Source: Gammaproteobacteria bacterium (lineage in GTDB: Bacteria > Pseudomonadota > Gammaproteobacteria > GCA-001735895). Taken from it: 41,629 nucleotides of DNA. The translations under genes were made by a program, and so were the position numbers. The number at the start of each line of letters is the position of its first letter. Positions within the stretch are counted from its first letter, which is position 1. The DNA is taken from the NCBI GenBank assembly GCA_022340305.1, contig JAJDOF010000066.1:1-41629 (forward strand). The letters are read 5' to 3'. The notes under the pieces were generated by a model that did not search any database, had not been told where the DNA came from, and saw only the letters and a list, made by a program, of their open reading frames with translations. Of the stretch, positions 17,629 to 40,038 are shown piece after piece.

Positions 17629-17692
17629 CGTTATTCCCGCGCAGGCGGGAATCTCAGCGTTGTTGCAAGATCCCCGCCTGCGCGGGGATGAC
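17629..17692. repeat. Pair of REP-like palindromes
   Basis: ATTCCCGCGCAGGCGGGAAT and, in opposite orientation, ATCCCCGCCTGCGCGGGGAT flank a short spacer (CTCAGCGTTGTTGCAAG). They belong to the same family as the array at 16561. Another degraded copy (ATTCCCGCACAAGCGGAAAT) lies at about 17908-17927, directly before the sixA start. Confidence 0.8.
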
Positions 17693-17693
17693 T

Positions 17694-17847
17694 GAAAAAC
17701 TGCTACCGATGTGCCCGGCTCTACAAGATCGTGATTCTAGTGCGTCGAACCGGCACTTACGCGGGGATCCGAAAAAGTGCTACCGATGTGCCAGGCTCTA
17801 CAAGATCGTGATTCCAGTGCGTCGAAGCGGCACTTACGCGGCGATGC
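17694..17847. repeat. 77-bp imperfect tandem duplication
   Basis: The segment beginning GAAAAACTGCTACCGATGTG at 17694 recurs at 17771 as GAAAAAGTGCTACCGATGTG, and similarity continues through CTACAAGATCGTGATTC, AGTGCGTCGAA and GGCACTTACGCGG. The two copies differ at a handful of bases. The period (77) is nearly that of the REP array at 16561 (76), and the unit abuts a REP palindrome, so the two arrays may have formed the same way. Confidence 0.8.
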
Positions 17848-17944
17848 CGAATGACTGGTGACGCCACTTCGTGGACCGCAGGCACCTGGGGTGAAAGGAC
17901 AACCGTTATTCCCGCACAAGCGGAAATCTTGTAATATCGGCTGC

Positions 17945-22499: not shown

Positions 22500-22978
22500 A
22501 ATACCTGCTTACCCTTGATTACATAATGCAGGGCATTTTACTCAAATACACTACCCATCGATGTGCATGAAATCACATTAAGCGGACAAATACTGTTCCA
22601 GGGTATTCGATGAATTCTGCCGATTCGGTCGTCGACAATATCGGAAAGCATTTTCATGCACTGTTTAGCCTGTTAGCTATTCGAAATTGTTCACAGCGAA
22701 ACCGTCACCAGGAGAAAACCTATCACCGGAGACGACAAATTGCATTGTCAAAAGGATCTGTTTTACCTAATCCACGGTCCAGATTTAGTAGTACCAAAGT
22801 ATAGTTTTTCAAAATTTACCCTGTTTGGGTGAAGACGACGACCTTCCATAAAACCTATAGTCACGTGCAAATCTGCAGGCACCCGAATTTCAGGCTTTTC
22901 ACCTGACCGTATCTGCAAATGGCTGTTCAGGTCCTCAAAAAACGCAAGAACAAGTAAAAAAACTGATGGAGATAAAAT
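22500..22978. other. Regulatory spacer between the TlpA-like gene and the first LuxR gene
   Basis: This 479-bp divergent spacer has no convincing gene. It contains the two-box promoter element of the LuxR gene at 22791-22861. After it comes an untranslated leader of about 110 nt ending in GGAG before the ATG. The first 290 bp are unexplained. Confidence 0.65.
22792..22861 (+). promoter_or_regulatory. Composite two-box promoter element, copy A (first LuxR gene)
   Basis: Box 1 is TACCAAAGTATAG at 22792-22804. Box 2 is the inverted repeat ACCC-tgttt-GGGT at 22818-22830, followed by GAAG. The two TACC motifs start 25 bp apart. A good -10 hexamer, TATAGT, lies at 22856-22861, 25 bp after box 2, so box 2 would abut the -35 position, as at class II activated promoters. 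The same architecture is found before three other genes in this window. Confidence 0.68.
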
Positions 22979-23626
22979 ATGGTAAGTCCAATCCGAATTG
23001 CAATTTTCGATCAAAGCCCGATCACAAGGCGCGGCTTAAAGGCTATTTTAAGTACCGATAACGGCCTGGAAACTGTATTCGAGGTATCTTGCCCTGCTGA
23101 ATTAATCGAGCGTCTAAATGCCGATGAAATAAATATTATCCTGATCGGCCAGCACGAGCTCGCGCCAGCGGAATTGAAAAACCTGGCGGGGAAAATCCAT
23201 GCCAGGCCTGGCACGAAAATAATTGCCATGTTCGATTGCAGTGACCGGGAACAACTCGGCAAAGCCGTCGAAATGGGCGCCAAAGGCGTCCAGTGTACAC
23301 ACGATTTTGTCACCGAGGAATTCATCAAGATGATCCATACGGTACATCTCGGTGGCACAAGCCTGTCGGCAAATTGCGTAATGAATTTGATCGGTGGGAT
23401 GCATTCGGTTAATGGGAGGTTACCATCGCAGCAAACTCAACTACCCGTGGTGAATCTCAGCTCGCGTGAGCAGCAGGTGCTCAGCCTGGTCGCCAAGGGT
23501 AAGACCAATAATGACATCGCAGAAAATCTATTTATCAGCCCGCGCACGGTTAAATTCCACGTCAGTTCGATTCTGTCCAAGTTGAATGTCAAAAACCGGA
23601 CCGAAGCGGCCCTCCGGTGTGTTTGA
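22979..23626 (+). CDS. LuxR/NarL-type regulator with degenerate receiver (paralogue 1)
   Basis: A 215-residue NarL/FixJ-type protein. Residues 5-120 fold like a receiver, but the phospho-acceptor position is Gly57 ([10 protein letters not shown]) instead of Asp. The conserved lysine near GVQCTHD is also gone, while Asp11 of the acidic pocket remains. Residues 150-212 are a complete LuxR helix-turn-helix ([38 protein letters not shown]). It probably binds DNA without classical phosphorylation. The ATG has GGAG 7 nt upstream. The paralogue at 39418 shares the Gly57 change, and both genes carry the two-box promoter. Confidence 0.9.
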
Positions 23627-24401
23627 TATTGAGTTAGGAGTTCGCGACAAGCCGGTCTGTGATCTGGAATAGGTGTTGTCCCTAATCTAGTCTCCGCCAG
23701 GTCCGGATCCTGCTACCACAGCGCCACTAAAACTTCGATTACGGCCTGTGCCCAATGCAGTTAGGGATAGTTTTACAAAACTATCGAAGGAGCAAATGAC
23801 ACTGGCCTCTATCACACTGGCATCCCGACGAAGCGCCCAGGACAGGGGCTTTGCTGAACCGATTGTTCATCGTGCCGATACATTCTCTTCGATACTCACC
23901 GCCTCCCAGTAGCAGGCGCGTACCGTTTTAGCGGTTCTCCCGATCAGCCGTGAGACTGCGCTAGTAACTTTCAGTGATTCATCCCGAGCGATGCATCGGC
24001 CTGATTTAGCCGCTGGCGCCTTGCGCGTCAGGTTCTACCGGCCAGGACCCCTTAAAATCAGCCAGCGGAAGTTGCCCCTGGAATCTCATAGAGAATTATC
24101 GATGAATGCATTTTGGATGCCTCAGGCCGAATTATTGTGTGTCAATCTACCTGGCTTCATCCATTCTCACGAATATAAATCACGGGCAGGCGATACGACG
24201 GTGGCATTGGTGACGGTAAATGAGGTCATCGATACCTTTACTTGAGTGATTTCCGGACACTGAAGGAATGGCAGAAAAGGTAAGCTTCCAGCGAAGCCAG
24301 GCGGTTGATTTTCGCAGGGTTGAATGGACTGATTTTCATTTTCGAGATCAGACATGACGAGGCGCAAATATCGTGGCAAGTCCGAGTGGCGGTACCTGGT
24401 C
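23627..24401. other. Gene-poor spacer after the first LuxR gene
   Basis: No credible gene. It holds a perfect inverted repeat, GATAGTTTT-AC-AAAACTATC, at 23766-23785. Five bases later GGAG precedes an ATG at 23796 that opens a 38-codon frame ending at 23912. The peptide (MTLASITLASRRSAQDRG...) resembles nothing I know and is probably chance. The rest shows no recognisable feature. Confidence 0.55.
23766..23785. repeat. Perfect 9-bp inverted repeat
   Basis: GATAGTTTT and AAAACTATC are separated by AC. There is no T-tract, so it may be an operator or a weak transcript end for the LuxR gene 140 bp upstream. Confidence 0.5.
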
Positions 24402-25049
24402 AAACAGCAGCCTTGCAGCGGCCGTTGCGCAACGGGGTACCTGGATTGTTATCAGAGTTAGCTGCAGGTAAAGGGGTATACCGGGTATGTATACATCGAC
24501 GTTTTCCTGGCTGGCTGCTGCGCCCATATGCACGGCTGAAGTTGATCGAAAATCCAAAAAGATCAGGTCAAGGGCAGAGCCGACCGGGCGATCGGCCGCT
24601 TGTGCAATCTCCGCTGAAGCGAATCCGAGATCAAGGGCTGTAGGAGCAAAGGCAGGTCGCTAATTCGCCTGAAGATCGCGCAGCAGCTGCTCGATCAGCT
24701 CAAATCCTGGCTGGAAAGGTCAGCTTTGCAGGTACTACCGAAATCAGCAATTGGCGCGGCCGTCGCATCTAGTCTCGGGCAATGGGGAAAATCCGAAGGT
24801 TGATTTGAAAGCGGCCATCGGCAAATCGCCAACAACCGCGCCGGACGGGTAATCAAGCGTTTCGTCATCGGCCGTAGCAACTGGACGTTCGCCACTGGCG
24901 CTAACGCGCGCGATCCCCTTCAGGCGGATTCGAACAACCAGGGCCTGCAGTCTCAAGCCTGCAGCTACGCGGATGAAAGAGTTCGTGAAAAACTCGATAC
25001 ACATCGATCAGCTGCTAGCGGGGAATGTTGCCCGGCCAAAACCGCATGA
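24402..25049 (+). pseudogene. Fossil IS66-family transposase (C-terminal half)
   Basis: A single frame read through five internal stops (24459, 24537, 24543, 24615, 24801) resembles the C-terminal half of an IS66 TnpC. Recognisable pieces, in order, are LQVKGYTGY, LAGCCAH (CwAH motif), KDQVKGRADRAIGRL, LKSWLERSALQVLPKS, SLGQWGKSEG, ESGHRQIANN (DNN region), IKRFVIGRSNWTFA (GRkNWlF) and a decayed TAKANG/LR helix. The frame ends at TGA 25047. I found no insertion or deletion across about 215 codons, only substitutions. No IS66 terminal repeats, tnpA or tnpB were seen. It is long dead. Confidence 0.78.
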
Positions 25050-25080
25050 TTAACAGGGGAGGGGACGCAGGACGCTTACC

Positions 25081-25165
25081 ATTAGAATATTCCGGCAATT
25101 AGAATATTCCGGCGGCGGATACCAAATAAGCGACCTAACCCGGGATGGGTGTTACCCACCCCGGG
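25081..25165. repeat. Short tandem repeat and strong hairpin
   Basis: ATTAGAATATTCCGGC occurs twice in tandem (25081 and 25098, 17-bp period). At 25139-25165 the sequence CCCGGGATGGGT-gtt-ACCCACCCCGGG forms a strong, near-perfect hairpin. There is no T-tract downstream on the plus strand. It lies 120 bp beyond the stop of the SCO-cytochrome gene and could end that minus-strand transcript. Confidence 0.55.
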
Positions 25166-25283
25166 CCGAGTCCCTTGTCATGACGAAATAGTCGTGAAGC
25201 GAATAACACGCCAATGAACATCAGGTTAAGTCGAAGGCTACCCCAGCGACAAACCCTGATGAATAAAACTCGGGATATCCCGT

Positions 25284-26327
25284 TTATTCCCCAGATTCGC
25301 CGGCGGAGCTTGCTACCGTTCCATTACTCAATTTTTCAGTTTCTGCTTCCATGTAGTTGATAAGATCTTCAACATCCTGCGTAGTCAGGCCCATATTGGG
25401 CATGCGAACTTTGTATCGATTGAAAAGACTCATCGCCAGGGGATCTTTTTCTGCCAGCATTTTGTCAGGCTCCATCAACCATCGCACCAGCCAGGCGGGA
25501 TCACGCTGTTTTGTCACCCCCTGCAAATCAGGACCGACGCCGTCCTTGCCGAAACCATGGCAAGAGCTGCAACGGGTGCGAAAAATAGTCTCTCCCGGAA
25601 CCATTTTCTTTAGTTTAGGTGCATCGGCATAATCCTTGGTATTAACCGAGGCTGTTTTCCAGTTATGCAACCAGTCACTCATTTGCGTGGCCATAACATA
25701 CGGATCTTCAAAGGGTGAACGCTTCATCCAGCGCCCGGTGGCCTGGTTGCCGATAATCATGCTGAGATTATGATCATTCGGGTTGTCCGGATTATTCTGG
25801 ATATCATCGATGTACAAACCCAGCTTCTTGCGTAACTCGATGATATCCGCCCTGTTACCGGTTAAGAAGGGCCATTCCGGGCCGACATTGAATTTTTTCT
25901 TGTAGGCTTTGAGAACAGTGGGTGTATCGATATCGGGATCGATACTGATCGAGTAGAAAAAAATATCCTTGCCGACACGATCACCCAGGATTTCGGCTAC
26001 TCTTTTAAGTTTCGCGGTCTCCAGCGGGCACAATTCTTCGCAGGAAGTGTATATAAAGTTTATGGCAACGACCTTACCCTCGATCAGGTCGTCGAAAAAC
26101 CTGACTTTTTCGCCATCCTGGGTAATCAGGGTGGGGTTGGGAAAGTAATCTCTGCCCCAGACGGTACTGGTCCCGGGCTTGACCGCGACACTTGCCGTGA
26201 CGACCGGCTGGGCATCGCTGGAGGGAGCCTGGTGGGTGACGCCGTCGTGCGCCAGCGTCACGTTGACAAGCAGCAGCGTGGCAGCGAGGGTGGTGAGCAA
26301 ATTGCCTGGAAAATTAAGCGGGTTCAT
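25284..26327 (-). CDS. SCO1/SenC copper chaperone fused to cytochrome c
   Basis: A 347-residue exported protein. A signal peptide (LLTTLAATLLLVNVTLA) is followed by a SCO domain with copper ligands Cys96 and Cys100 (YTSCEELCP) and His186 (DHNLSM). From about residue 243 there is a class I cytochrome c domain with haem motif CSSCH (Cys253, Cys256, His257) and an axial Met in RMPNMGL (309 or 312). SCO proteins deliver copper to metal centres and act as thiol reductases; the cytochrome may supply or accept electrons. It lies 169 bp downstream of the multicopper oxidase on the same strand, so copper loading of that enzyme, or electron transfer from it, is a reasonable inference. Confidence 0.92.
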   Translation of the reverse strand: MNPLNFPGNLLTTLAATLLLVNVTLAHDGVTHQAPSSDAQPVVTASVAVKPGTSTVWGRDYFPNPTLITQDGEKVRFFDDLIEGKVVAINFIYTSCEELCPLETAKLKRVAEILGDRVGKDIFFYSISIDPDIDTPTVLKAYKKKFNVGPEWPFLTGNRADIIELRKKLGLYIDDIQNNPDNPNDHNLSMIIGNQATGRWMKRSPFEDPYVMATQMSDWLHNWKTASVNTKDYADAPKLKKMVPGETIFRTRCSSCHGFGKDGVGPDLQGVTKQRDPAWLVRWLMEPDKMLAEKDPLAMSLFNRYKVRMPNMGLTTQDVEDLINYMEAETEKLSNGTVASSAGESGE

Positions 26328-26397
26328 TGTGTTTGAATCCTCGGTTTGAAATGAATGCTGGATGGGTAGGATGATAAAGTCCCGGTGGTAAAACGGC

Positions 26398-26426
26398 TGT
26401 GTGCTGGGTCACAGACCCAGCACACA
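26398..26426. terminator. 12-bp perfect hairpin between oxidase and SCO gene
   Basis: TGTGTGCTGGGT and ACCCAGCACACA pair perfectly around a 5-base loop. On the minus strand the stem is followed by GCCGTTTTACC, a short T-run four bases away. It may partially terminate or stabilise the multicopper oxidase transcript and so reduce expression of the downstream SCO gene. Confidence 0.5.
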
Positions 26427-26496
26427 GACAATTTGACTGCCTTACTTACTCTAAAAACATCTTTAGATTAAGGCTGTCTTTCATCCCGGTTTGACC

Positions 26497-29127
<2,631 letters not shown>

Positions 29128-29263
29128 GATGTTGCTCCCAGGGTTCTATAGTCCATAATTTTTGTCGAAATATTTGACCATCGGATACAGGACAGCCAGC
29201 TTCGTACAAATATTACCGATGTATTGATTTCTGTATCACTGGCACATGGAAGAGATTTCCTAG

Positions 29264-29276
29264 CCCAAAGGTACAG
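29264..29276. promoter_or_regulatory. Isolated box 1 motif on the oxidase side
   Basis: CCCAAAGGTACAG at 29264-29276 matches box 1 of the composite element (consensus TACCAAGGTACAG). No ACCC-N5-GGGT partner lies within 60 bp on either side. Its position 137 bp upstream of the multicopper oxidase start makes it a candidate weak site for that gene. Confidence 0.4.
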
Positions 29277-29602
29277 TTTTCGGTCAGACCATGGCCTGAT
29301 AGCAGGTCTGAATCCCGGTAACTTACGGTGTCGTTCCCGGCTGGACTTCCGCATTTCGCGCGGGCTTCATATATCGAGTTACTGCAGCAATCGAGGTTTA
29401 ATCCTTGACTGCAATAGTATCCATCAGATGAAGGTTTGAGCCGTAACCGCGCGTTAAACCTGTGCCCTTTGTTAACGCCTGCTCTCCTTCATGATTCCCT
29501 GTCCCCTGGTCCGGGATGCCAGATTGACGATAGCGACCCCGAAACCGACCTAGGTCTGCCCCGGGGAGGGATTATTGCTCGATCGGCAGGGGATACGCCC
29601 AG

Positions 29603-29669
29603 TACTTTGGTACAGTTTTGCAGGCAAATACCCCGTTTGGGGGATGATCTTCGGGGCATCGATTGTTAT
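29603..29669 (+). promoter_or_regulatory. Composite two-box promoter element, copy B (peroxidase)
   Basis: Box 1 reads TACTTTGGTACAG at 29603-29615; its TAC-TTTG-GTA core is the exact reverse complement of the TAC-CAAA-GTA core in copy A, as expected for a dyad site. Box 2 is ACCC-cgttt-GGGG at 29630-29642, followed by GATG. The TAC motifs start 26 bp apart. A -10-like TGTTAT lies at 29664-29669. Confidence 0.65.
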
Positions 29670-29803
29670 TTTCCAAGCCGTAGTCAAATCGCCGACAGCA
29701 GATTCGATCCAGTGGATTTTTGGGGAGCAGGGGTGATGGGGACATACAGTTTCCCCAGGCCGGACAATTTGTGGCGTCGACACCAGTCAAAGAGAGCTAA
29801 TTC

Positions 29804-32800
29804 ATGAATGATAAATTGCAAAAGATACTCGAGCAGATCTCCCGCATCTCAACCTTCACCACCTTGCTGACCCTTGGGGTGCTGGCGTTGAGTCTGTTGG
29901 CTTTGTCACTTCCCCGGGTCGCGTCAGCGAATCACTGCGGTAACGCGGGCTGCTCGGCAAACGCGGACCTCGCCTTTGACACCGAAGACCTGAAATTCAT
30001 CCTCGATCAGATCAGGATCGCCGAGCGCCACGCCGCGGGCGAGAACCTGGCTGACCTCATTCCCAACAAGAGCCTTCCCTGGGGTCTGCGCACGGTCGAC
30101 GGTTCCTTCAACAACCTGATCCCGGGCCAGGAGGATTTCGGCGCGGCCGACCTCGAATTCCCGGTTTTGGGTGAACGCGATTTTCCGCCGGCGCAGAACG
30201 GCACCAGTTATCTTAGCGGGCAGACCGTGCAGGACTCCACGCCGCGCCTGATCAGCCACCTGATTGTCAACCAGTCGAGCGATAACCCGGCTGCAGTCGC
30301 CGCTGCCATCGCGGAAGGCGGCGTCAATATCGGCCCGGACATCACCGGTATCGACCAGTATTTCATTCCGAATACGGGGCCTGACGCGGCCCTCTCGGCG
30401 CCGACCAACGCCTTCATGACATTCTTCGGCCAGTTCTTCGATCACGGCCTCGACCTGGTAAACAAGGGCGGCAACGGTGTCGTCATGATCCCCTTGCAGC
30501 CGGATGATCCGTTGTATGATCCCACACCCGGTGCACCGAACTTCATGATCATGCCGCGCGCAACCCGTGGCGCCGGCGCCGATGGTATCGTCGGCACCGC
30601 GGATGATACCTTTGTCAATGCCACGACCCCGCACGTCGACCAGCAACAGACCTATGCCTCGGAAGCCTCGTCGCAGATATTGCTGCGACACTACGAGGTC
30701 AGGAACGGCGTGCTGCAGGATAGCGGGCGCCTTCTCAATGGCTATGGTGTCGATCGCGTGCTCGATAGTGCGGACGATGGTGGCATGGCGACCTGGGATA
30801 CCGCCCGGGCGCAAGCCCGGTTGAAATTCGGCATCGACCTCGATGATCACGATGGCAACAACATTCCGATGATCCTGGCCGATCCCTACGGCAACTTCAT
30901 CCCCGGGCCGGTGAGTGGCTTGCCGCAGCTGGTGACCGCGATCGTCGGCGGCATCCCGACACTGCTCGAGGGCAACCTGGCGACTCCGGTGGATGCCAGC
31001 CAGGCGCTGCGGGTCAACCACAGTTTCTTTCTCGACGTGGCTCACACGGCGGCGCCAGAGGGCCTGCCCGACGTGGACACGGTGATCAACCCGCGCACCG
31101 ACGTGCTCAGCGGTCAGGCCACTCGCGGTATTCGCGCGTCTTCACCTGCAGGCTTCTATGACGACGAACTGCTTGGTGCCCACTTTGTCTGTGGTGATGG
31201 CCGCTGCAATGAAAACATCGCCCTCAGTACGGTACATAGCATTTTCCATCACGAGCACAACCGACTCGTCGAGGTGACCAAGCGGGTCCTGCTGGATGCC
31301 GGCGACCTGGTGTTGTTGAACGAGTTTCTGGACGCCCCGGTCGCGGTATTTCCCGCCTGGGCCGGCCTGCCGTTCCCGATCTCCGATGCGGCGCTGACGC
31401 ACCAGGCACAGGCGCGGGTGGCGATTGCCGCGTTGAACCTCGACTGGAACGGCAAGCGTATTTTCCAGGCCGCGAGATTCGGTACCGAGATGCAGTACAA
31501 CCGCATCGTGTTCGATGAATTCGCGCCCACCATCGCCGGACTGAAAGATGTCTTCACCGGTTTTCACACCAGCATCGACCCGGCGATTACGGCTGAATTC
31601 TCCCAGTCCGTTTATCGCTTCGGACACTCCATGCTGACCGAGACGGTGGATCGTTACGACGCTAATTTCAATCCCATTGTCGAGGCAGTTAGCGGAGACC
31701 CGGCGCAGTTGGGACTATTCGAGGCCTTCCTCAATCCGCTCGCGCTGTATAATGCCGATGCCAACGGTGTGCCCACGCTCGATCCCGAGGCTGCAACGGG
31801 CGCCGTCATCCGCGGCCTCACGCGCACCACGGCCAACGAGATCGACGAATTCGTCACCGGAGCCTTGCAGAACAACCTGGTCGGTCTGCCACTGGATCTC
31901 GGCGCCCTCAACATCGCCCGCGGACGCGATGTGGGTAACCCGTCATTGAACGCCGCGCGGCGCATGTTCTATTCGGCGACCGCCGACTCCCGGCTTACGC
32001 CCTACGCGCACTGGGCCGACTATGCGGACAACCTGCGGCACGAGGCCTCGCTGGTAAATTTCATCGCCGCATACGGAACCCACGTGACACTCGCCGGTGT
32101 GGACGGGATCGTCGGTAACGCGGACGATCCCTACCAGAGCTACGCCGAGCGACGTGCGGCGGCCTGCGCCATCGTCGGCGAACTGACCACCATCAATGAT
32201 CTTACCCCGGATCCGGCGGCGTATTGCGTGCGCAACGGTTTCGGCACACCGCCCCCGACGCCGGCTGACGCGATGGACTTCCTTTACAGCATGGGCGCCT
32301 GGCAGAGCGACGCCAACGGTCGCACGATTACCGGCCTGGACGACGTCGATTTCTGGAACGGGGGCCTCGCAGAAGAGCGCATGCCGTTCGGTGGCTATCT
32401 CGGTTCGACCCACAACTACGTGTTCGAGTCGCAGATGGAAAGTCTGCAAAATGGCGATCGCTTCTACTACGTGGGGCGTACCGCCAACCTGCACCTGCTC
32501 GCCGAGCTCGAATCCAATACCTTCACCGCGCTTGCCATGCGCAGCACCGATCTCGGTGAGCAGGACGGCGGTAAAATGTCGCTCAACATATTCCTGACAG
32601 CGGATGCCATTCTCGAGGTCGATCAGGCCCAGCAGTTCAACGCCACGGGCGATGGCACGACGGCCGATCCCACGGGCACCGCGGAGCTGACCCCGCTGGT
32701 TATCCGTGATGCGAGCCTGGCGACTACCAACGTTTTTATTGCCGACACGACGCGTTTTCTGCAGTTTACCGGCGCGGTACACGCGACCATCAATGGTACC

Positions 32801-35332
32801 AGCGGCGACGATACCATACTTGGCGGTATTGACGACGACACGATACTCGGCGGTGCGGGCAACGACCGCATCGACGCGGGAGATGGCCCCGACCTGGTCG
32901 AGGGTGGAAGCGGCGATGACATCATCACCGACCTCGGCGGCATGGACGTGATCCAGGGCGGCGCCGGCAACGACGCCATCTCGAGCGGCAACGAGGCCGA
33001 CGTAATCTTTGGTGACGAGGGCAACGACTTCATCGTCAATCCGAGCGAGTTCGGCGAGATCTTTGCCGGCCTCGGGGACGATTACATTCTCGACGGACCC
33101 AGTAACAGCCACATTCGGGGCGGCGCCGGCGCCGACTGGATGGAAAACCTGGGCGGCGGTGCGGACCTGTTCCAGGGCGACAACGGTGCGGCGCCCGAGG
33201 CGGGCGAACCCCCGATCAAGGGTCACGACGTATTCATCAACCGCGCCGGTAACGCCGACGGCGACATGGAAAGCGGTGACGACATTTACGTCGACGGTCC
33301 CGGCATCGACCGGGTCGTGGGCCAGCTGGGATTCGACTGGGTGAGCTTTGCGAATGATCGCTTCGGGGTCGACGTCGACCTTGACCTGTTCGTTCTCGAG
33401 CCACCCAAGGTACCCTCATCGAACGCCACGGTACTGAACCGTTATGACCGTGTCGAAGGCCTCAGTGGCTCGCGCCACAGTGATGTGCTGCGCGGCACGC
33501 CGAATCAATTTGGCGTCGCTGTAGTCGGCGAAGTGGGCATCGGCATCGGTGGCGGACCGGGTAACGAGCTGGTCAACTTCGACCTGATCACCGGGCTCAG
33601 TGAACTCGTACCGCTGAGCGAACGCGCAGATCTACCGAATGATCCGGTGACCGGTGAAGCCCAGTTCGGCTGGGCCGATGGCGAAATCATTCTTGGCGGC
33701 GCAGGAAGCGACCTCATGGTCGGCGAGGGCGGCGATGACATCATCGACGGCGACGCCGCGCTCGCGGTAATGATCGCAACGCCCGACCCGGCGATCAGAA
33801 CCGGGCCGGAATGGGTGGCGTATCGCGCCGCCAGATCGCTCGCTGTATCGACCGCATCTCAGGCTGAAAAGGATGCGAAGGCTGCGCTGGCCTTTGTCGA
33901 GGCAGGCGAGGCGGCACAGCTTGCGCTGGATGCGGCGACTGCGTCCGCCACGGCGGCGATCGCCGCGGCCGATGCCGCCGCGGCCGCATTGACCAACGAT
34001 ATTACCGTCAAGTCCGAAGTCACCAACTTCATTAGTGGTGGACGCCTGTCTGGTGCACGGCTGATACAGCGGCAGATCTGGCAGGACTTCGTCAACCGAT
34101 GTGGCGCACTGCTGATCGATCTCGATATGCAGCTACAGGAAACTACTGCCGATACCGCGGCTGAAGCGGTTGCGCTGCAGGCGCAGGCGGTTGCGAAGCA
34201 GATTGCCTCGCAGCAGTCAGCCCTGGAAGCGACTGCCGCGGCATCAGCCCTGGCCGCGGAGACGGCCCAGGTTGACCTGGTCGTGGCGCAGGCCGCTCTG
34301 CCGGCTGACGTCATGACGCTGGTTCCCAGCATGGAAGATCTGCTGGATGCCGTGTTCGAAGGCTTCATCAATCCGGGTGAGCTGTCGATTTCGCGCGTAA
34401 TCAGCGATAACGACCCGACCGATATCGATACGGATACGGCTGTATTCCAGGGCAAGCGACTGAACTACACGATCAACGTGAGTGCGGTTCCGGGTTTCAT
34501 CATGGTTACCGATAACCGCAACTTTACCAATCTCGTGGGTGTTGGCGGCGGAATTTTTGTCGGCAATGGACGCGATCTGCTGAGGAACGTTGAACGGCTG
34601 AAATTCGAGGACGAGACCGTTATCGTCGGCAACCTGCCTGGACGCACCGAAAACACCAGTAACAGCGTGGCGCTCGGTCAGGCCGCGGTTACGGGGATTG
34701 CCGAGGTGCCCAATACCCTGACGGCCTCGATTGCGAACGTTACCGACGCTGACAACGTTAGTGTGGAAAATCCTGCTGGTGCGATCAATACTCCGGTCGC
34801 CTGGACCTGGGAGTCTGAATTGCGGCCCGGCAGCGAGGTGTTCACACCGATCATTCGCGTCGGCATCAATGGTATCGGCGCGACCCGGGAGACCAATCCA
34901 ACCCTGGTATTGACTGCCGCCGAAGCGGGACTGCGGGTCAGGGTACAGGGGATATTCAAGGACGACGCCCAGGTGCTGGAAATGGTCCATTCGACACCGC
35001 TGCTGGTCGCGGGTGATCCCCTGGCACCGCCGGGTCCGGTTGCCGGTGCATTTCTGTCGATCCAGTCGGCTACCTTTTCCACGCGCCAGCTGAGGCTGCG
35101 GGTTGATGGCACCGTCGGTCCTATCATCAACACGACCCTTGCCCTGTTTGCGCCGGGAACGACAGACCTCAACGGTAACTGTACCGGCAGCTTCCTTGCC
35201 AACCTGACTTTTGCCCCGGATGGGACTTTCAGCTACGACAGTGGCGGTGGCGGATTTGCGGCGGACCCGGTCAGTGTCTGTGTGAGCTCCAATAACGGCC
35301 TGACGACAGCTGTTCCGACGACTCTGAACTAA
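29804..35332 (+). CDS. Giant animal-type haem peroxidase with RTX repeats
   Basis: An 1842-residue exported protein. A signal sequence (about residues 1-43, ending VASA) precedes an animal haem peroxidase domain (about 60-860). The catalytic residues are intact: Gln210, Asp213 and distal His214 (FGQFFDHGLD), Arg467 and Glu470 (GDGRCNEN), HHEHNRL, and proximal His608 (YRFGHSML). RTX-type GGxGxDxx calcium repeats cover about 998-1110, with a short second set at about 1290-1313. An Ala-rich helical block (about 1340-1510) follows, then the NPGEL...DTAVFQG...LRNVERLKFED domain and an Ig-like domain common to bacterial peroxidases of this family. The architecture recalls MopA-type Mn(II)-oxidising peroxidases. 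It has its own two-box promoter and terminator. Confidence 0.93.
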   Translation: MNDKLQKILEQISRISTFTTLLTLGVLALSLLALSLPRVASANHCGNAGCSANADLAFDTEDLKFILDQIRIAERHAAGENLADLIPNKSLPWGLRTVDGSFNNLIPGQEDFGAADLEFPVLGERDFPPAQNGTSYLSGQTVQDSTPRLISHLIVNQSSDNPAAVAAAIAEGGVNIGPDITGIDQYFIPNTGPDAALSAPTNAFMTFFGQFFDHGLDLVNKGGNGVVMIPLQPDDPLYDPTPGAPNFMIMPRATRGAGADGIVGTADDTFVNATTPHVDQQQTYASEASSQILLRHYEVRNGVLQDSGRLLNGYGVDRVLDSADDGGMATWDTARAQARLKFGIDLDDHDGNNIPMILADPYGNFIPGPVSGLPQLVTAIVGGIPTLLEGNLATPVDASQALRVNHSFFLDVAHTAAPEGLPDVDTVINPRTDVLSGQATRGIRASSPAGFYDDELLGAHFVCGDGRCNENIALSTVHSIFHHEHNRLVEVTKRVLLDAGDLVLLNEFLDAPVAVFPAWAGLPFPISDAALTHQAQARVAIAALNLDWNGKRIFQAARFGTEMQYNRIVFDEFAPTIAGLKDVFTGFHTSIDPAITAEFSQSVYRFGHSMLTETVDRYDANFNPIVEAVSGDPAQLGLFEAFLNPLALYNADANGVPTLDPEAATGAVIRGLTRTTANEIDEFVTGALQNNLVGLPLDLGALNIARGRDVGNPSLNAARRMFYSATADSRLTPYAHWADYADNLRHEASLVNFIAAYGTHVTLAGVDGIVGNADDPYQSYAERRAAACAIVGELTTINDLTPDPAAYCVRNGFGTPPPTPADAMDFLYSMGAWQSDANGRTITGLDDVDFWNGGLAEERMPFGGYLGSTHNYVFESQMESLQNGDRFYYVGRTANLHLLAELESNTFTALAMRSTDLGEQDGGKMSLNIFLTADAILEVDQAQQFNATGDGTTADPTGTAELTPLVIRDASLATTNVFIADTTRFLQFTGAVHATINGTSGDDTILGGIDDDTILGGAGNDRIDAGDGPDLVEGGSGDDIITDLGGMDVIQGGAGNDAISSGNEADVIFGDEGNDFIVNPSEFGEIFAGLGDDYILDGPSNSHIRGGAGADWMENLGGGADLFQGDNGAAPEAGEPPIKGHDVFINRAGNADGDMESGDDIYVDGPGIDRVVGQLGFDWVSFANDRFGVDVDLDLFVLEPPKVPSSNATVLNRYDRVEGLSGSRHSDVLRGTPNQFGVAVVGEVGIGIGGGPGNELVNFDLITGLSELVPLSERADLPNDPVTGEAQFGWADGEIILGGAGSDLMVGEGGDDIIDGDAALAVMIATPDPAIRTGPEWVAYRAARSLAVSTASQAEKDAKAALAFVEAGEAAQLALDAATASATAAIAAADAAAAALTNDITVKSEVTNFISGGRLSGARLIQRQIWQDFVNRCGALLIDLDMQLQETTADTAAEAVALQAQAVAKQIASQQSALEATAAASALAAETAQVDLVVAQAALPADVMTLVPSMEDLLDAVFEGFINPGELSISRVISDNDPTDIDTDTAVFQGKRLNYTINVSAVPGFIMVTDNRNFTNLVGVGGGIFVGNGRDLLRNVERLKFEDETVIVGNLPGRTENTSNSVALGQAAVTGIAEVPNTLTASIANVTDADNVSVENPAGAINTPVAWTWESELRPGSEVFTPIIRVGINGIGATRETNPTLVLTAAEAGLRVRVQGIFKDDAQVLEMVHSTPLLVAGDPLAPPGPVAGAFLSIQSATFSTRQLRLRVDGTVGPIINTTLALFAPGTTDLNGNCTGSFLANLTFAPDGTFSYDSGGGGFAADPVSVCVSSNNGLTTAVPTTLN

Positions 35333-35354
35333 GTTTGAGTCGGGGGTCTGTCAA

Positions 35355-35501
35355 GTCCTGATCTGTTGTTGAAGCAGTAGAATATGAGGGCCGGTGTGAC
35401 GTTCACTCCGGCCCTTTTTCAGTGGTCGCCGCGATGACTCTTGATGCATCATGGTCCGGGGGCGCCAGGTCCTGATTTATTGTTAAAGCAGTGAATATGA
35501 G
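35355..35501. repeat. Imperfect direct repeat flanking the terminator
   Basis: GTCCTGATCTGTTGTTGAAG at 35355, continuing CAGTAGAATATGAG, recurs at 35469 as GTCCTGATTTATTGTTAAAG continuing CAGTGAATATGAG. The second copy is not followed by a hairpin. It looks like a partial duplication of the region just after the peroxidase stop codon. Confidence 0.65.
35388..35419 (+). terminator. Rho-independent terminator of the peroxidase gene
   Basis: GGGCCGG...GTGA-cgt-TCAC...CCGGCCC forms an 11-pair stem with one mismatch, followed directly by TTTTT at 35415-35419. It begins 55 bp after the peroxidase stop codon. Confidence 0.85.
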
Positions 35502-35783
35502 CTTCAGTTTGCAGCTCTCTCCGACTCCATTGGGTGCCTGTGCGTGGCCTTTGAAACGATTTTCATCGAAACCGGGTATTTACCAGTCGGCCAGGTACCT
35601 CAGGCGGTAACACCCCCGGTTTCGCCTCTCGGCAGCGCTGCGTTACCCGCCTGCCATCCTGCCAGGCGCTTGCCAAAATGGATCTCCTGTGAACCTGGCG
35701 TGATTGATCGAAAGTCTCTGCACTCCGGGCACTTAGTTATAATTGCTGAGAACTTCTTGGCACAAAGGACCGACAGGAACCAA

Positions 35784-35875
35784 TACCAAGGTCCAGAAAT
35801 GACTGGCCATAGGACTAGAACTGATAGCTTATACCCTGTTTGGGTGATGTGCGGCATCTTATTAATTTCTACTAT
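35784..35875 (+). promoter_or_regulatory. Composite two-box promoter element, copy C (unknown secreted gene)
   Basis: Box 1 is TACCAAGGTCCAG at 35784-35796. A weaker related motif, CACAAAGGACC, lies about 23 bp upstream at 35761. Box 2 is ACCC-tgttt-GGGT at 35833-35845, followed by GATGTG. The TACC motifs start 48 bp apart. A -10-like TACTAT is at 35870-35875, 24 bp after box 2. Confidence 0.66.
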
Positions 35876-35970
35876 GCGCTCGGACAAAACCTGAAAGTGC
35901 ATATCGGAAGATGCGTGCTTAAACAGCAGCAGTCGATCATTCAAGTAAAACCAATAAGGAGCCAGACACC

Positions 35971-38193
35971 ATGCAATACAGCAAGCTAAACCAGAAAACG
36001 GCGGGGCGGACAGCAAGGGGACTTTCAGCCCTCGTGCTGTTAACCGGCCTGACCGCAGTGGGTACTGCGATGGCGCAAGCCGTCGTCAATCCACTTCAAA
36101 CCGTAGGGCGGGGAGCAAACGGCGAGACCGGCGCGATCTTCCTTTCTCATATCACCAATATCGTTATCGACGACCCGACCGATGTGTGGTCCAGTGGCAC
36201 GATTACACTCCAGGATGGTCACCAGGTTATCATCCCCAGGAACCTGGTGATGGATTTGCCCGCCAACCGCTTGACCCTGGCGAATTTCTGCCTGGGCGAC
36301 CAGGTGCCGGAAAATGAAAAGACTTTGGGTGGCGCCGACACCAACCTCTGTGGCGTCGGCCACCTGGCCAGCATCATCGCCAACCGCCAGGGTGACGGCA
36401 CCGTCATCGCCGGTGACGTGTTCATCAGCAAGGATGACGACTCTATCCAGGGTACGGTCACCGCAATCAATGACGACGGTTCGTTCGTTGTCGATGGTTT
36501 GCAGCTGGTGAAGCTGAACGACCCGGACGCGGTGCACAGCATTCAACCGGGGCCGAATAACGGCAGCCCGGACGTGCGTTACACCAACGATCCGAGTAAC
36601 TACACCTTCACCTTCACTACTGGTTACCCGGTTTGTATCCCGAACACGGCCACGCAATCGACCTGTTTTGCAAATTCAGGCCGCGGTGCGGGCGTCAGGT
36701 CCGGGACCGCGAGTGACGCCTCTCGCTTCGAACCGCTGCAAGTGGGCGATCATGTCACCACGGAAGGCGGTATCGAATGTGACGCCCTTGGCTTGAATTG
36801 CTACCAGTCCGCGCACACCATGATGGTGAACGCGGAAATCGCGACTGTTGGCCCGATCGATTACGTGCTCGTCGAGGAAGCGGAGTGGGATATCAACAAC
36901 TTTGCCAACGTGCGTATGCGTGGTCTCAACATCGGCGTCGTATCGGATGCTACTTCAGCCGTCCGGATGTATCGGATCGTGCTGAACGGCGCCTCCGACG
37001 CGCTCGGCGCAACCGGTTGTGTCGCGGATGAACTGATTGCCGATACCCAGGCCTGTGATGCCATCGGTGGTGCTGGTAGTTGTGGTGGCCAGGGAATTGC
37101 CGCAAACGGTGGCCAGGTGGTCAAGCAAAACTACGACTGGGACTTCCTGATCGGTGAAAGCAAGCCGGAAAGAAATCCGGTCGCGGTAGTTCGCCAGGCA
37201 GGAGATCCGGCTGGATTACTGGTAACTGGACTTTCTGACGCCGATAACGCGATCCGCGTTATGGCGCCCATCGGTCGCGACATCATCTACAAGTCGTCCA
37301 AGTGGACCACAGCGGTTGCTAATTTCGAAGCGGGCACGGGCCCCGATCCAAGCACCATGGCAACCGACGTCAGCGGTAATCCCGCACAGTGGGGCCAGTA
37401 CCTGTCGCCCAACGGCATCGGCCATCCTGAATGGAACGAGGTTGATCTCGCGGGTTTTGATACTCCCTTCATGTTCGAGGGAATCAACTGGAACCGTGAC
37501 CGTCGTCTTGGGCCGGAAGGTGGTTCTGATTCACTGGCCAGCGCACCGATGTACAGCCTGGGCCTCGACCCATTCCCGACTTCGGGCTTGAGTGGACTCG
37601 CCGTTATCGAAAGCCTGATTGCAGCGAATGGCGGCCGTAACGGCTCAGCCAACCAGCAGATCCTTGGCGTACCGGTGAACTTCCCTGCCGATATCCTGTA
37701 CAAGGATGCCTGTGCCGGACAAAAGGGTGATGGCAGCGTTCCAGTACCGAGTCTGGCCGCGCGTTCCCTGGTGCTCGACCCAACCGCTGCATTGGTAGCG
37801 CCGACTGTGATCGATGCCACCGGTGACGGAACCGTCGGCGTAGTTGCTGCGGGTACGGGTGCAGGTCAGGTCACCAGTCATGCGCTGCTGAGTGCTGACG
37901 GAACCCTTATCGGTACCATCAACAATGGCGATACCCTGAACGTCGCCGGAGTACAGGTGATAATCGAAGCGGTCGCCGATGCAGCGACTACTGCGGTAGG
38001 CATGGATATTCCGGGTGTTACCATTCGCGGCAATGCCGACTTCAGTCCTCGGTTCTACCTCGATGCCGATCTTCGTGGCATTGGCCTGGTAGCAAGAGAG
38101 TTGGCTCCGGGTACCTATACCCTGACGTCCACTCCGCTTAATGGTCGGTCCGCAGCAGGCACTTCGCTGACCACCACCTTTACCGTACAGTAA
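35971..38193 (+). CDS. Large secreted protein of unknown function
   Basis: A 740-residue protein I cannot assign to a family. A signal peptide is clear (RGLSALVLLTGLTAVGTAMAQA). The mature chain is acidic, rich in Gly, Asp, Asn and Val, and looks mostly beta. It carries several cysteines (FCLGDQ, NLCGVG, PVCIP, STCFAN, IECDALGLNCY, GCVADE, SCGGQG, DACAGQ), which could form disulfides. One stretch (IQGTVTAINDDGSFVVDGLQLV) looks like a small beta-barrel motif. The C-terminal 130 residues (LVAPTVIDATGDG to the end) look like a separate Ig-like domain. There are no haem, copper or RTX motifs. The ATG has AAGGAG 9 nt upstream. It shares its promoter type with the peroxidase gene. Confidence 0.85.
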   Translation: MQYSKLNQKTAGRTARGLSALVLLTGLTAVGTAMAQAVVNPLQTVGRGANGETGAIFLSHITNIVIDDPTDVWSSGTITLQDGHQVIIPRNLVMDLPANRLTLANFCLGDQVPENEKTLGGADTNLCGVGHLASIIANRQGDGTVIAGDVFISKDDDSIQGTVTAINDDGSFVVDGLQLVKLNDPDAVHSIQPGPNNGSPDVRYTNDPSNYTFTFTTGYPVCIPNTATQSTCFANSGRGAGVRSGTASDASRFEPLQVGDHVTTEGGIECDALGLNCYQSAHTMMVNAEIATVGPIDYVLVEEAEWDINNFANVRMRGLNIGVVSDATSAVRMYRIVLNGASDALGATGCVADELIADTQACDAIGGAGSCGGQGIAANGGQVVKQNYDWDFLIGESKPERNPVAVVRQAGDPAGLLVTGLSDADNAIRVMAPIGRDIIYKSSKWTTAVANFEAGTGPDPSTMATDVSGNPAQWGQYLSPNGIGHPEWNEVDLAGFDTPFMFEGINWNRDRRLGPEGGSDSLASAPMYSLGLDPFPTSGLSGLAVIESLIAANGGRNGSANQQILGVPVNFPADILYKDACAGQKGDGSVPVPSLAARSLVLDPTAALVAPTVIDATGDGTVGVVAAGTGAGQVTSHALLSADGTLIGTINNGDTLNVAGVQVIIEAVADAATTAVGMDIPGVTIRGNADFSPRFYLDADLRGIGLVARELAPGTYTLTSTPLNGRSAAGTSLTTTFTVQ

Positions 38194-38215
38194 GCGGTTA
38201 AAGGGGATTTGAGGC

Positions 38216-38257
38216 GGGCCCTCTCTCGGAAACGAGAGGGGGCCCGTCACTTTTTTA
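38216..38257 (+). terminator. Rho-independent terminator of the unknown secreted gene
   Basis: GGGCCCTCTCTCG-gaaa-CGAGAGGGGGCCC is a 13-pair stem with one wobble/mismatch and a GNRA-type loop. It is followed, five bases later, by TTTTTT. It starts 23 bp after the stop codon of the 740-residue protein. Confidence 0.87.
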
Positions 38258-39234
38258 AACTGGGAACAATCGACACCAACCCCCAACCAACAACCATCTC
38301 GCGGAATGTAGGCCGATGGACCCCTTCAAATCACATGGTGTATCCAGCTCTCCGCTGGCACACGACGATATTGAAGTATCGTAGTCAAGACAATAAGGCA
38401 AGCCACAGATCATCTATTGCCGCCATACTGGCGAATTCCATTCCGATGTCAGCATGTCCCTGGAGCACCATTTCGTTTTATCTTGACAGGGCGGTGAATT
38501 TTTATACCGAAGCAACGAGGCTATTTTCCTCTGAGTAGCTCACCAGGGTGATCCTGGACATTTCGTTCGAGAATTGGATTGAGTCGAATCGCGATGTCCT
38601 GTCCCGATTTTACACCGGGTTGAGCATGATAAAGAGGGTCAGAGATGTTGGTGACCGTTCGATCTGCGGTCCTTATGTGAACAAGCAACTGCGGCAGGTC
38701 AATGGACAATTTCGGCTTGCGCGCGCATCCGGGAGTCAGATCGATACGGCAGTTCGCGAAATCGAAGAAGGTGAAATCCTGGCTAACTACTAGCGGGTAA
38801 TGAAGTCATGGCGCAAGCGCTAGCGAAGCCAGGAGCAGGGCAGTCGATATCGCTCACGCTGACGCGTTCCCGGGAATTACAGGGCTATAGGCTGCGAGCC
38901 AGTCCGAATGCAAAGTAAGGCGCCAGACAGCGCGGCCTGATAGCCGACATGGGAGTAACAACGATTTAGTTTGCCGAATTATGAGGCGTTCAGGCCGTCA
39001 TCTCATGCGGTAACGATGTTCCTGGATCACCTGCAGAAGGAGGACACGCAGGTTATTCCTGGGGCCGGCTCCACGACTCCTGATTCGATGCAGGGACGCT
39101 GATCAAGTAAATTTCGAGGCGTGGTTTTATCGCCCTGGCCTGGTTTTGTCATGACAGGTCCCCGGTATAAAAGGATCCATCCAGGTGTCCAGCTGCTATC
39201 GATAGCGGGTGTCCTCGAAACGCTTGTCTATTAC
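38258..39234. other. Gene-poor spacer
   Basis: Nearly 1 kb with no confident gene. The best frame runs from a GTG at 38548 to 38793 (81 residues, including the charged helix SGSQIDTAVREIEEGEIL). It resembles nothing I recognise and has a weak ribosome binding site, so it may be chance or a remnant. No RNA gene or repeat was seen. Confidence 0.5.
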
Positions 39235-39336
39235 CCCAAGGTACAGGCCTGCCCCCTACCAAGGTACAGAACAGTAAATAAATTCAACAATTTACCTCGT
39301 TTGGGTGATGTGCCGATTCATTACAAGCTCTAATAT
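39235..39336 (+). promoter_or_regulatory. Composite two-box promoter element, copy D (second LuxR gene)
   Basis: Two box 1 motifs lie in tandem 23 bp apart: CCCAAGGTACAG at 39235-39246 and TACCAAGGTACAG at 39257-39269, the latter containing the perfect dyad TACCAAGGTA. Box 2 is ACCT-cgttt-GGGT at 39294-39306, followed by GATGTG. The nearer TACC motifs start 36 bp apart. A -10-like TAATAT lies at 39331-39336, 24 bp after box 2. The leader also contains AAGCAATTG (39351) and CAATTGCTT (39386) as a 9-bp inverted repeat. Confidence 0.68.
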
Positions 39337-39417: not shown

Positions 39418-40038
39418 ATGTTTAATTCCATTCGAGTCGCCACCTGTGATGCCAGCCCGGTCACAAGATTTGGGATCAAGAATTTCCTAAGTGCCGACCC
39501 CGCAATAGAAATTGTACTCGAAGCATCCTCCCAGGCGGAAATGCTCGAGCGCGGAACCGGTATGGAACTGGATATTATCCTCAACGGCATCGAAAAAGAA
39601 ATGGAATTCAGTGAATTATTAAATCGGCTTCGTGAGACCCAGGTCAACGCAAAAGTAATCGCATTGAACGATTGTAGCCACCGTAACCGGATCAGTGCAA
39701 TCGCCGAACTGGGCGTCAAGGGCTTTCATTGCAAGCACCATACCAGCGCTAGCGAAATGGCGCGTGCGATTCATGCGGTGTACGAGGGCGGTGTGGAATT
39801 ATCTGCCTGCGCAATGGGTTCATTGTTGCACGATCTGCAGGAGAAGGAATCCAGGCCGAAAGTAAATCTCAGCAACCGGGAACGACAGGTACTGGATCTG
39901 GTTGCTCAGGGTAAGAGCAATAACGAGATAGCAAAGGATCTATTTATCAGTGCACCTACTGTTAAATTTCATGTGAGTTCAATTCTGTCTAAATTGAATG
40001 TTAAGAATCGGACCGAGGCGGCGATGTGGTCGCTTTGA
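39418..40038 (+). CDS. LuxR/NarL-type regulator with degenerate receiver (paralogue 2)
   Basis: A 206-residue paralogue of the protein encoded at 22979. The receiver-like domain again has Gly at position 57 ([10 protein letters not shown]) in place of the phosphorylated Asp. It keeps Asp11 (TCDASPVTR) and, unlike paralogue 1, the lysine in GFHCKHH. The C-terminal HTH ([45 protein letters not shown]) is almost identical to that of paralogue 1, so both probably read the same DNA site. AGGAG lies 6 nt before the ATG. The two-box element upstream suggests autoregulation or cross-regulation. The PEP-CTERM gene follows after 62 bp. Confidence 0.9.

What the first reader, a model, noticed from the sequence alone, without database searches (positions are those of the whole stretch)
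22792..39336. One composite promoter element precedes four genes: a hidden regulon
Four upstream regions (22792, 29603, 35784, 39257) share box 1 (TACCAAGGTACAG, core a TACCAAGGTA dyad) and box 2 (ACCC-N5-GGGT followed by GATG or GAAG). The TAC-to-TAC spacings are 25, 26, 48 and 36 bp, so they differ by about 10-12 bp, as if both boxes must face the same side of the helix. A -10-like hexamer begins 22-26 bp after box 2 in all four, with no good -35, which is what an activator-dependent class II promoter looks like. The genes controlled are two LuxR regulators, a giant haem peroxidase and an unknown secreted protein. The motifs and spacings are seen directly; the regulon and class II mode are inferred.
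Basis: partly seen in the sequence, partly recalled or inferred. Interest (0 to 1): 0.9.

Follow-up and report, generated by a model that had tools for sequence, protein, structure and literature searches.

The report
Genus-wide activator box drives matrix regulon
A 16-base DNA switch found before four genes here recurs across much of this bacterial genus at a fixed distance from the transcription start signal, in front of surface-matrix genes and an uncatalogued small RNA, so the hidden regulon looks real although the protein that reads it is not yet known.

Summary
The four sites exist as described. The two boxes, however, are different things.

Box 2 (TAMCYYRTTTGGGTGATK, a near-palindrome) is the regulon element. 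It occurs 27 times (up to 2 mismatches) in the own genome against 4 for the reversed control. In 16 relatives with a conserved small RNA the count is 46 against 6; other genus members 10 against 12; outside the genus 9 against 18. A -10 hexamer sits exactly 22 nt after it (TANNNT in 26 of 62 sites; at most 4 at any other offset) and no -35 is seen, as in a class II activator-dependent sigma-70-type promoter.

Targets include VPLPA-CTERM sorted proteins, polysaccharide sugar transferases, LuxR regulators, two giant RTX haem peroxidases, and a syntenic ~205-218 nt sRNA candidate with no Rfam match (17 of 31 genus genomes, 0 of 84 others).

Box 1 accompanies box 2 at 5 of 19 own-genome sites. Its five near-matches elsewhere lie inside genes. 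It is a local add-on. Helical phasing is not significant once the period is chosen (p = 0.13).

The site differs from the published sigma-54/PrsR site of PEP-CTERM genes.

The parts
22772..22804 (+). Box 1 tandem pair upstream of LuxR1: CCACGGTCCAG (22772-22782) and CCAAAGTATAG (22794-22804), 22 bp apart
22817..22832 (+). Box 2, LuxR1 promoter (TACCCTGTTTGGGTGA)
22856..22861 (+). -10-like TATAGT, 23 nt after box 2
22979..23626 (+). LuxR1: GerE protein, 215 aa, receiver-like N-terminus without the usual acidic pair or phospho-acceptor Asp
   Evidence: acidic residues judged by eye
29605..29615 (+). Box 1 copy CTTTGGTACAG (overlaps minus-strand CCAAAGTACTG at 29600-29610)
29629..29644 (+). Box 2, giant peroxidase promoter (TACCCCGTTTGGGGGA)
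29667..29672 (+). -10-like TATTTT, 22 nt after box 2
29804..35332 (+). Giant protein, 1842 aa, probably secreted: animal haem peroxidase domain plus RTX calcium-binding repeats
   Evidence: secretion inferred
35786..35796 (+). Box 1 copy CCAAGGTCCAG; a possible weak second copy at 35807 by eye
35832..35847 (+). Box 2, promoter of 740-aa protein
35870..35875 (+). -10-like TACTAT, 22 nt after box 2
35971..38193 (+). 740-aa protein with a signal-peptide-like start (by eye); no Pfam match at E 0.001 and no NCBIfam match at E 0.01
39236..39269 (+). Box 1 tandem pair CCAAGGTACAG at 39236 and 39259 (23 bp apart)
39293..39308 (+). Box 2, LuxR2 promoter (TACCTCGTTTGGGTGA)
39331..39336 (+). -10-like TAATAT, 22 nt after box 2
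39418..40038 (+). LuxR2: GerE protein, 206 aa, receiver-like N-terminus without phospho-acceptor Asp (by eye)
40101..40736 (+). 211-aa protein ending in a sorting-signal-like tail (VPVPGAFALFGIALAGLGFVRKQK; family matches below cut-off), 62 bp after LuxR2, possibly in its operon
   Evidence: operon inferred

Best explanation
Box 2 is the dimer-binding site (inverted repeat, ideal form TCACCCATTTGGGTGA) of one transcription activator. It is centred near -42 relative to the expected start, overlapping where a -35 would be, and followed at a fixed 22 nt by a sigma-70-type -10. The activator, most likely of the NarL/LuxR (GerE) kind, recruits RNA polymerase by class II contact. In this genus it switches on a surface-matrix programme: exosortase-type VPLPA-CTERM proteins, polysaccharide genes and a conserved ~205-218 nt small RNA. 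In the window's species, lineage-specific genes (two giant RTX peroxidases, the 740-aa protein, three LuxR paralogues) have come under it. Box 1 is an extra site at five of these promoters only, probably for a second factor or a modulator. Shown by computation: enrichment, fixed geometry, lack of a -35, restriction to this genus among the genomes compared, synteny of two intergenic units. Inferred: activation, class II contact, regulator family, matrix function, that the RNA is made.
For: Own genome: 27 hits at up to 2 mismatches against 4 reversed-control; 15 against 0 for TADCYYGTTTGGGTGA at up to 1 mismatch. sRNA-positive relatives 46 against 6, other genus members 10 against 12, 26 genomes outside the genus 9 against 18. 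TANNNT at offset 22 in 26 of 62 de-duplicated sites, next best offset 4; N-A-N3-T in 42 of 62, at most 10 at the other offsets compared; own genome alone TANNNT 12 of 17. No -35: 0 of 62 reach 5 of 6. sRNA: its terminator module, searched without box 2, is in 17 of 31 genus genomes and 0 of 84 others. Sixteen of the 17 have box 2 upstream (one with a mismatch) with GATACT 38 nt from the box start, 39 in the own genome, beside NUDIX and kinase (srkA-type) genes. Targets: VPLPA-CTERM proteins, sugar transferases, the XrtD locus.
Against: No regulator follows the site exactly: window-type LuxR in 4 of 17 sRNA-positive genomes, P0007 in 14, P0006 in 15, GacA-like in all 17 but also in 11 of the other 14. 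No expression or binding data. G011, G021 and G028 lack the sRNA yet have plausible box-2 promoters, so site and sRNA do not co-occur strictly. Several own sites have no protein gene close downstream (C92, C116) or genes off the matrix theme (SCO1/PCuAC, cytochrome c/DsbC, APS kinase), some at two-mismatch sites. LuxR orthologues in G005, G017, G023, G032 and G035 have no box 2. 36 of 62 sites lack a full TANNNT at +22. The 19 own sites were chosen by eye from 27.
Confidence: 0.72

Rival explanations
1. One reading: boxes 1 and 2 are one composite element, both needed and on the same helix face, defining a small four- or five-gene LuxR/peroxidase regulon.
For: Best box-1 scores at the four window promoters have shuffle p 0.002-0.006, partly circular because the matrix came from them; at the second peroxidase promoter, not used to build that matrix, p is 0.002. 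Copies lie at start distances near 23-25, 34-37, 45-46 and 57, with one at 50.
Against: 14 of 19 own box-2 sites lack box 1, as do 42 of 45 relatives' sites. Phasing p = 0.13 after period choice. Many sites have box 2 and the fixed -10 without box 1.
Confidence: 0.12
2. The window's LuxR proteins (LuxR1, LuxR2 and paralogue LuxR3) themselves read box 2 in this species, giving positive feedback. They share one recognition helix ([14 protein letters not shown]).
For: All three genes carry box 2, LuxR3 with mismatches; recognition helices are identical; the genome with three paralogues has most sites (15; next 6). Nearest solved structures are VraR and NarL; CsgD, NarL and other models match below cut-off.
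Against: Within the genus only G000, G005, G017 and G023 have this recognition helix among the hits at E up to 1e-15, so most box-2 genomes must use another reader. In G005, G017 and G023 the orthologues are preceded instead by a GGCACGRAGNTTGCT sigma-54-like sequence (read by eye).
Confidence: 0.35
3. Box 2 is the -35 element of an alternative (ECF-type) sigma factor rather than an activator site.
For: Strong conservation of GGGTGAT just upstream, a fixed distance to the -10, and no other -35.
Against: Box 2 is a near-palindrome, a form expected for a dimer. The gap from GGGTGATK to the -10 is 20 nt, longer than sigma spacers as I recall them, and the -10 is TANNNT, sigma-70-like.
Confidence: 0.08
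4. The motif is a mobile or repeat sequence or common descent of duplicated promoters, not a regulatory site.
For: The two peroxidases are 75% identical paralogues; several relatives' sites are orthologous.
Against: Sites were de-duplicated at 62% identity and per-position conservation is confined to the box, a few bases beside it and the -10. Two intergenic units keep it in synteny across 16 and 9 genomes with diverged flanks.
Confidence: 0.03

Closest known systems
PEP-CTERM cis-regulatory site with sigma-54, PrsK/PrsR (Haft et al. 2006, PMC1569441, passages seen)
   Same: A shared intergenic element upstream of exosortase-sorted protein genes and exopolysaccharide loci in Proteobacteria
   Different: The published site is a -24/-12 sigma-54 motif plus a separate activator motif; box 2 is a dyad at a fixed distance from a TANNNT -10, and the consensus of 62 sites shows no -24/-12 pair
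RpoN1-dependent pepA of Aquincola (PMC9850573, passages seen)
   Same: Regulated transcription of a PEP-CTERM gene
   Different: Start site mapped to TGGCAC/CTGCTT -24/-12; sigma-54, not sigma-70-like
NarL/LuxR-family (GerE) inverted-repeat sites
   Same: Dyad with outer T-N-A-C-C half-sites, class II position, candidate regulators present; P0007 comes near the NarL model (217 bits, cut-off 250)
   Different: Spacing and letters differ from the NarL 7-2-7 heptamers as I recall them; no binding test
CsgD/VpsT matrix regulators
   Same: GerE proteins with degenerate receivers controlling matrix genes (recalled); LuxR2 matches the CsgD model weakly (69.9 bits, cut-off 250) and VpsT by its DNA-binding domain only
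   Different: Far below the equivalog cut-off; a GGGTGA half-site in CsgD is recalled, not confirmed (listings)
GacA/UvrY-activated sRNAs (CsrB, RsmY/Z)
   Same: A response regulator activating an intergenic sRNA; a GacA-like protein is present (260.5 bits, cut-off 280)
   Different: Box 2 is not the GacA box as I recall it; the sRNA has no Rfam match at gathering scores and one chance-level match at E up to 1

Membership tests
Class II activator-dependent sigma-70 promoter | Activator site centred near -41.5, overlapping the -35 region | tested here: met
   Box centre 30 bp before a -10 at a fixed offset, 26 of 62 TANNNT and 42 of 62 N-A-N3-T; start site itself not mapped
Class II activator-dependent sigma-70 promoter | -10 present, consensus -35 absent | tested here: met
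   0 of 62 sites with 5 or more of 6 to TTGACA at spacer 15-19; mean 2.77 against 2.91 shuffled
Class II activator-dependent sigma-70 promoter | Transcription depends on the activator | not testable with these tools
   needs mutants or in vitro transcription
PEP-CTERM sigma-54/PrsR site | -24(GG)/-12(GC) element | tested here: not met
   Per-position consensus of 62 sites shows TANNNT and no GG/GC pair; definition from PMC1569441. Individual sites were not scanned for a -24/-12 element
NarL/LuxR (GerE) regulon | Reader is a GerE protein present wherever the site is | tested here: inconclusive
   Four GerE candidates compared; none both complete and specific; the GerE listing was cut off
NarL/LuxR (GerE) regulon | Purified protein binds the dyad | not testable with these tools
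   none
XrtD/VPLPA-CTERM sorting system | VPLPA-specific exosortase in the genome | tested here: met
   TIGR04152, 575.5 bits, cut-off 400, at G000:C133; but PF09721 is found at E up to 0.001 in only 4 of 31 genus genomes
XrtD/VPLPA-CTERM sorting system | Box-2 targets carry the sorting signal | tested here: met
   Pass TIGR03370 cut-off 25.35: C133 protein 27.3, G011 protein 28.1; below it: C102 and G012 proteins, 21.2 each; P0003 has no TIGR03370 match; others by eye
CsgD | NCBIfam equivalog NF007505 at cut-off | tested here: not met
   50.9 (LuxR1) and 69.9 (LuxR2) bits, cut-off 250
Known sRNA families (Rfam 15) | Match at gathering score | tested here: not met
   0 matches in 7 of the loci; best weak match PhrS 12.3 bits, E 0.77

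The most novel reading that the evidence does not exclude
Box 2 defines a second, sigma-54-independent control system for exosortase-sorted matrix: one GerE activator switches on surface proteins and polysaccharide and, in the same stroke, two conserved non-coding RNAs. One of these (pntB-cupin interval) appears to have evolved from the 3' end of a VPLPA-CTERM gene, keeping its promoter, sorting-signal words and terminator while losing the reading frame, and could act as a decoy or mimic of sorted-protein mRNAs.
Probability: 0.25. Interest if true: 0.82.

Novelty: new variant of a known kind. Interest (0 to 1): 0.62.

Why it matters
The control of exosortase-sorted surface proteins that my searches turned up in print is sigma-54/PrsR (open-access library, listings and passages only). 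Box 2 gives a testable second route in a gammaproteobacterial lineage whose named records are all MAGs, with a sharp promoter grammar (dyad, 22 nt, TANNNT). It allows regulon membership to be predicted from sequence and exposes a small-RNA candidate absent from Rfam at gathering scores. It also shows lineage-specific genes, such as giant peroxidases, under an older genus-wide promoter.

Tried and rejected
Composite two-box element: rejected as the general rule. Helical phasing: weak. The window LuxR family as the genus-wide reader: not supported. P0006 and P0007 as exclusive readers: both track the sRNA-positive clade imperfectly, and the tests ignore phylogeny. For one search, close orthologues were hand-listed: about 78% identity or more for P0006, 84% or more for P0007 (two partial copies included). 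'GacA-like' means the 30-35% identity second tier; only the own-genome protein was tested against the GacA model. Conserved 5' hairpin of the sRNA: single folds of most copies show one, but RNAalifold on the alignment and a script with gaps placed in mid-sequence gave no support outside the terminator. Coding role of the sRNA: ORFs of 15 or more codons are listed for 11 of 14 copies, none in the other three and no one frame shared by all. Rfam: nothing. Papers for a CsgD motif: listings only, motif not confirmed.

Mended after a recheck: one search took 4 of 15 one-mismatch sites to lie in the window; the list has 3, and one search gives the corrected figures.

Rows dropped: of 27 own-genome hits I used 19, leaving out by eye C22, C124, C31, C78:15744, C92:57499, C107, C130 and C141; 17 own sites pass the stricter pattern. 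Of 74 sites, 62 remained after de-duplication; these include a few one-mismatch hits inside genes or outside the genus. sRNA alignments A2-A4 hold 14 copies; of the 16 loci first aligned, L050 (no sRNA) and L096 (insert) were left out; the G012 and G029 copies came later. R1 searched 115 genomes with stricter filters that lose weak matches.
Full report
Observation. All four sites are present at the stated places. The 16-bp form TACCYYGTTTGGGKGA is exact at 22817, 29629, 35832 and 39293 and has only two further hits at up to 3 mismatches in the window (6 against 1.2 expected; 0 of 100 shuffles reach 6). Box 1 is looser: exact once, one mismatch three times. It is better described as CCAAGGTMCAG, in tandem with a 22-23 bp period at 22772/22794 and 39236/39259; a pair at 35786/35807 is by eye only.

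Box 2 is genome-wide and occurs in much of the genus. In the window's own genome (G000, 169 contigs, 86% complete) up to 2 mismatches gives 27 hits against 4 for the reversed pattern. TADCYYGTTTGGGTGA with up to 1 mismatch gives 15 against 0. Four of the 27, three of the 15, and four of the six exact hits fall in the window's 16.5 kb (Poisson 4e-6, 3e-5 and 1e-8). Tallies, summed: 16 sRNA-positive relatives 46 sites against 6 control; 14 other genus members 10 against 12; 26 genomes outside the genus 9 against 18. The second group is not empty: G011, G021 and G028 have plausible box-2 promoters.

Promoter grammar. From 74 sites in own and relatives' loci, 62 remained after de-duplication at 62% identity over 85 nt. 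Conservation is confined to the box, ATT just before it, a T-G/T just after, and a -10. TANNNT begins at offset 22 in 26 of 62 and at most 4 at any other offset from 0 to 49. A at +23 with T at +27 occurs in 42 of 62; over the other offsets compared the mean was 3.9 and the maximum 10. In the own genome alone TANNNT is at +22 in 12 of 17. In the window it is +22 at three sites and +23 at LuxR1. No site of 62 has a -35 with 5 of 6 matches at spacer 15-19, and the mean best match (2.77) is no better than shuffled (2.91). The box centre therefore lies 30 bp before the -10, near -42 if the -10 begins at -12: class II geometry. Dependence on an activator is inferred.

Box 1. A matrix built from the window copies scores well at 5 of 19 own box-2 promoters: LuxR1, peroxidase 1, the 740-aa gene, LuxR2, and peroxidase 2 on contig C94, which was not used to build it. 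The other 14 have no significant copy (p 0.13 or more). In relatives 3 of 45 pass the cut-off, all one-mismatch sites, against about 0.5 expected from shuffles. Genome-wide, TACCAAGGTACAG with up to 1 mismatch gives 7 against 1; the five outside the window lie inside reading frames of more than 120 codons, without box 2 within 150 bp. Box 1 copies tend to lie at steps of about 11 bp from box 2, but the Rayleigh test is 0.13 after period choice.

Targets. Own genome: three LuxR genes, two RTX haem peroxidases (75% identical over the first 900 residues), the 740-aa protein, VPLPA-type proteins on C133 and C102, a gene with a sub-threshold GerE match followed by a sugar transferase on C133 (a two-mismatch site), a glycosyltransferase, SCO1 plus PCuAC, a cytochrome c/DsbC protein, APS kinase. 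C133 also holds the VPLPA-specific exosortase XrtD (575.5 bits, cut-off 400). In relatives: sorted proteins (one in G011 passes TIGR03370) and sugar transferases in G011 and G023. The peroxidase (first 900 residues) has no relative at E up to 1e-40 in the 56 other genomes searched. The 740-aa protein has partial matches in one distant genome, G052. So these window genes are lineage-specific.

Two syntenic intergenic units. (a) Box 2, 22 nt (23 in own), GATACT, then a ~205-218 nt stretch ending TTTAATCGCGCAATRTTTGCGGGCC-loop-GGCCTTTTTTTT, between a NUDIX gene and a convergent kinase gene (NF008738, 440 bits, cut-off 194; I call it srkA from memory). Of the 16 copies placed, all 16 have the NUDIX gene and 15 the kinase; the sixteenth contig ends first. 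A covariance model of the terminator module alone (R1) finds one copy in each of 17 of 31 genus genomes and none in 84 others, with filters that can lose weak matches. Sixteen of these have box 2 210-224 nt upstream (382 in G004, which has an insert; one mismatch in G012) with GATACT 38 nt (own 39) from the box start. G029 keeps the 3' end without box 2. Rfam has no match. An exact 23-mer of this promoter occurs in 12 stretches of the 84,980-species collection, all titled Gammaproteobacteria MAGs. (b) Box 2 followed by a short stretch with sorting-signal words and an AGCAGCC...GGCTGCTTTTTTT terminator, downstream of pntB in 9 genomes and upstream of a ChrR-like cupin gene, 0.2-2.1 kb away, in 8 of those. 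The frame VPLPSAVWLFGS..GFIG is readable in G023 and G017 and nearly so in G015 but broken elsewhere, so it is either a decaying gene or an RNA derived from one.

Who reads box 2. The dyad suggests a dimer. GerE candidates: the window family (4 of 17 sRNA-positive genomes, 0 of 14 others), P0007 (14 of 17, 3 of 14; NarL model 217 bits, cut-off 250), P0006 (15 of 17, 3 of 14), GacA-like (17 of 17, 11 of 14; own protein 260.5 bits, cut-off 280). The P values (0.001 and 0.0003 for P0007 and P0006) ignore shared ancestry. P0007 lies about 34-37 kb from the sRNA in G000, G002, G003 and G030 and from the G029 remnant (places). None is decisive, and the GerE listing was cut off. LuxR1, LuxR2 and LuxR3 share one recognition helix; LuxR1 and LuxR2 lack the phospho-acceptor Asp, while LuxR3 seems to keep it (by eye).

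Comparison with the known. Haft et al. 2006 (PMC1569441, passages only) describe a sigma-54 -24/-12 motif with PrsK/PrsR upstream of 99 of 167 proteobacterial PEP-CTERM genes. The Aquincola pepA start was mapped to such a promoter (PMC9850573, passages only). Box 2's consensus does not fit that definition. My searches for PEP-CTERM or VPLPA-CTERM with LuxR, promoter or conserved upstream motif listed no paper on such a box; the library is open-access only.

Verdict. The motif, the regulon idea and the class II geometry hold up and become stronger with relatives. The composite element and helical claim do not generalise, and the regulator is open.

Noticed in passing
L055:3722-4101 (-) (G000:C39 near 56570-56840) and 16 relatives: Conserved small-RNA candidate between NUDIX and kinase genes, box-2 promoter in 16 of 17, strong terminator, no Rfam match.
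   Followed up: yes
L058, L073, L079, L081, L086, L090, L095, L109, L111 (alignment): Short box-2 unit after pntB with mostly broken VPLPA-CTERM words and a terminator; decayed gene or derived RNA.
   Followed up: partly
L214 (G004:C225): About 160 bp inserted between the sRNA's -10 and its conserved 5' part; box 2 still exact.
   Followed up: no
L125, L127, L128 upstream of the LuxR orthologues: GGCACGRAGNTTGCT sigma-54-like sequences (by eye) precede the LuxR orthologues in G005, G023 and G017, while the own-genome copies have box 2: a promoter swap.
   Followed up: partly
L078 minus strand 3978 and 3998: Two box-2 copies 20 bp apart upstream of an epimerase-family gene in G020.
   Followed up: no
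window 16561-16746 and 17681-17851: Tandem repeats with 76-77 bp units (2.4 and 2.2 copies).
   Followed up: no
window 25284-29127 (-): A protein with SCO1 and cytochrome c domains and an 876-aa multicopper oxidase next to the peroxidase; with SCO1/PCuAC on C14 after a box-2-like site, a possible copper/oxidant theme.
   Followed up: no
L113 (G021) and L099 (G013): Tails such as LPSAVWLFGSALIGFIG occur in genomes where PF09721 finds no exosortase (found in only 4 of 31 genus genomes).
   Followed up: no
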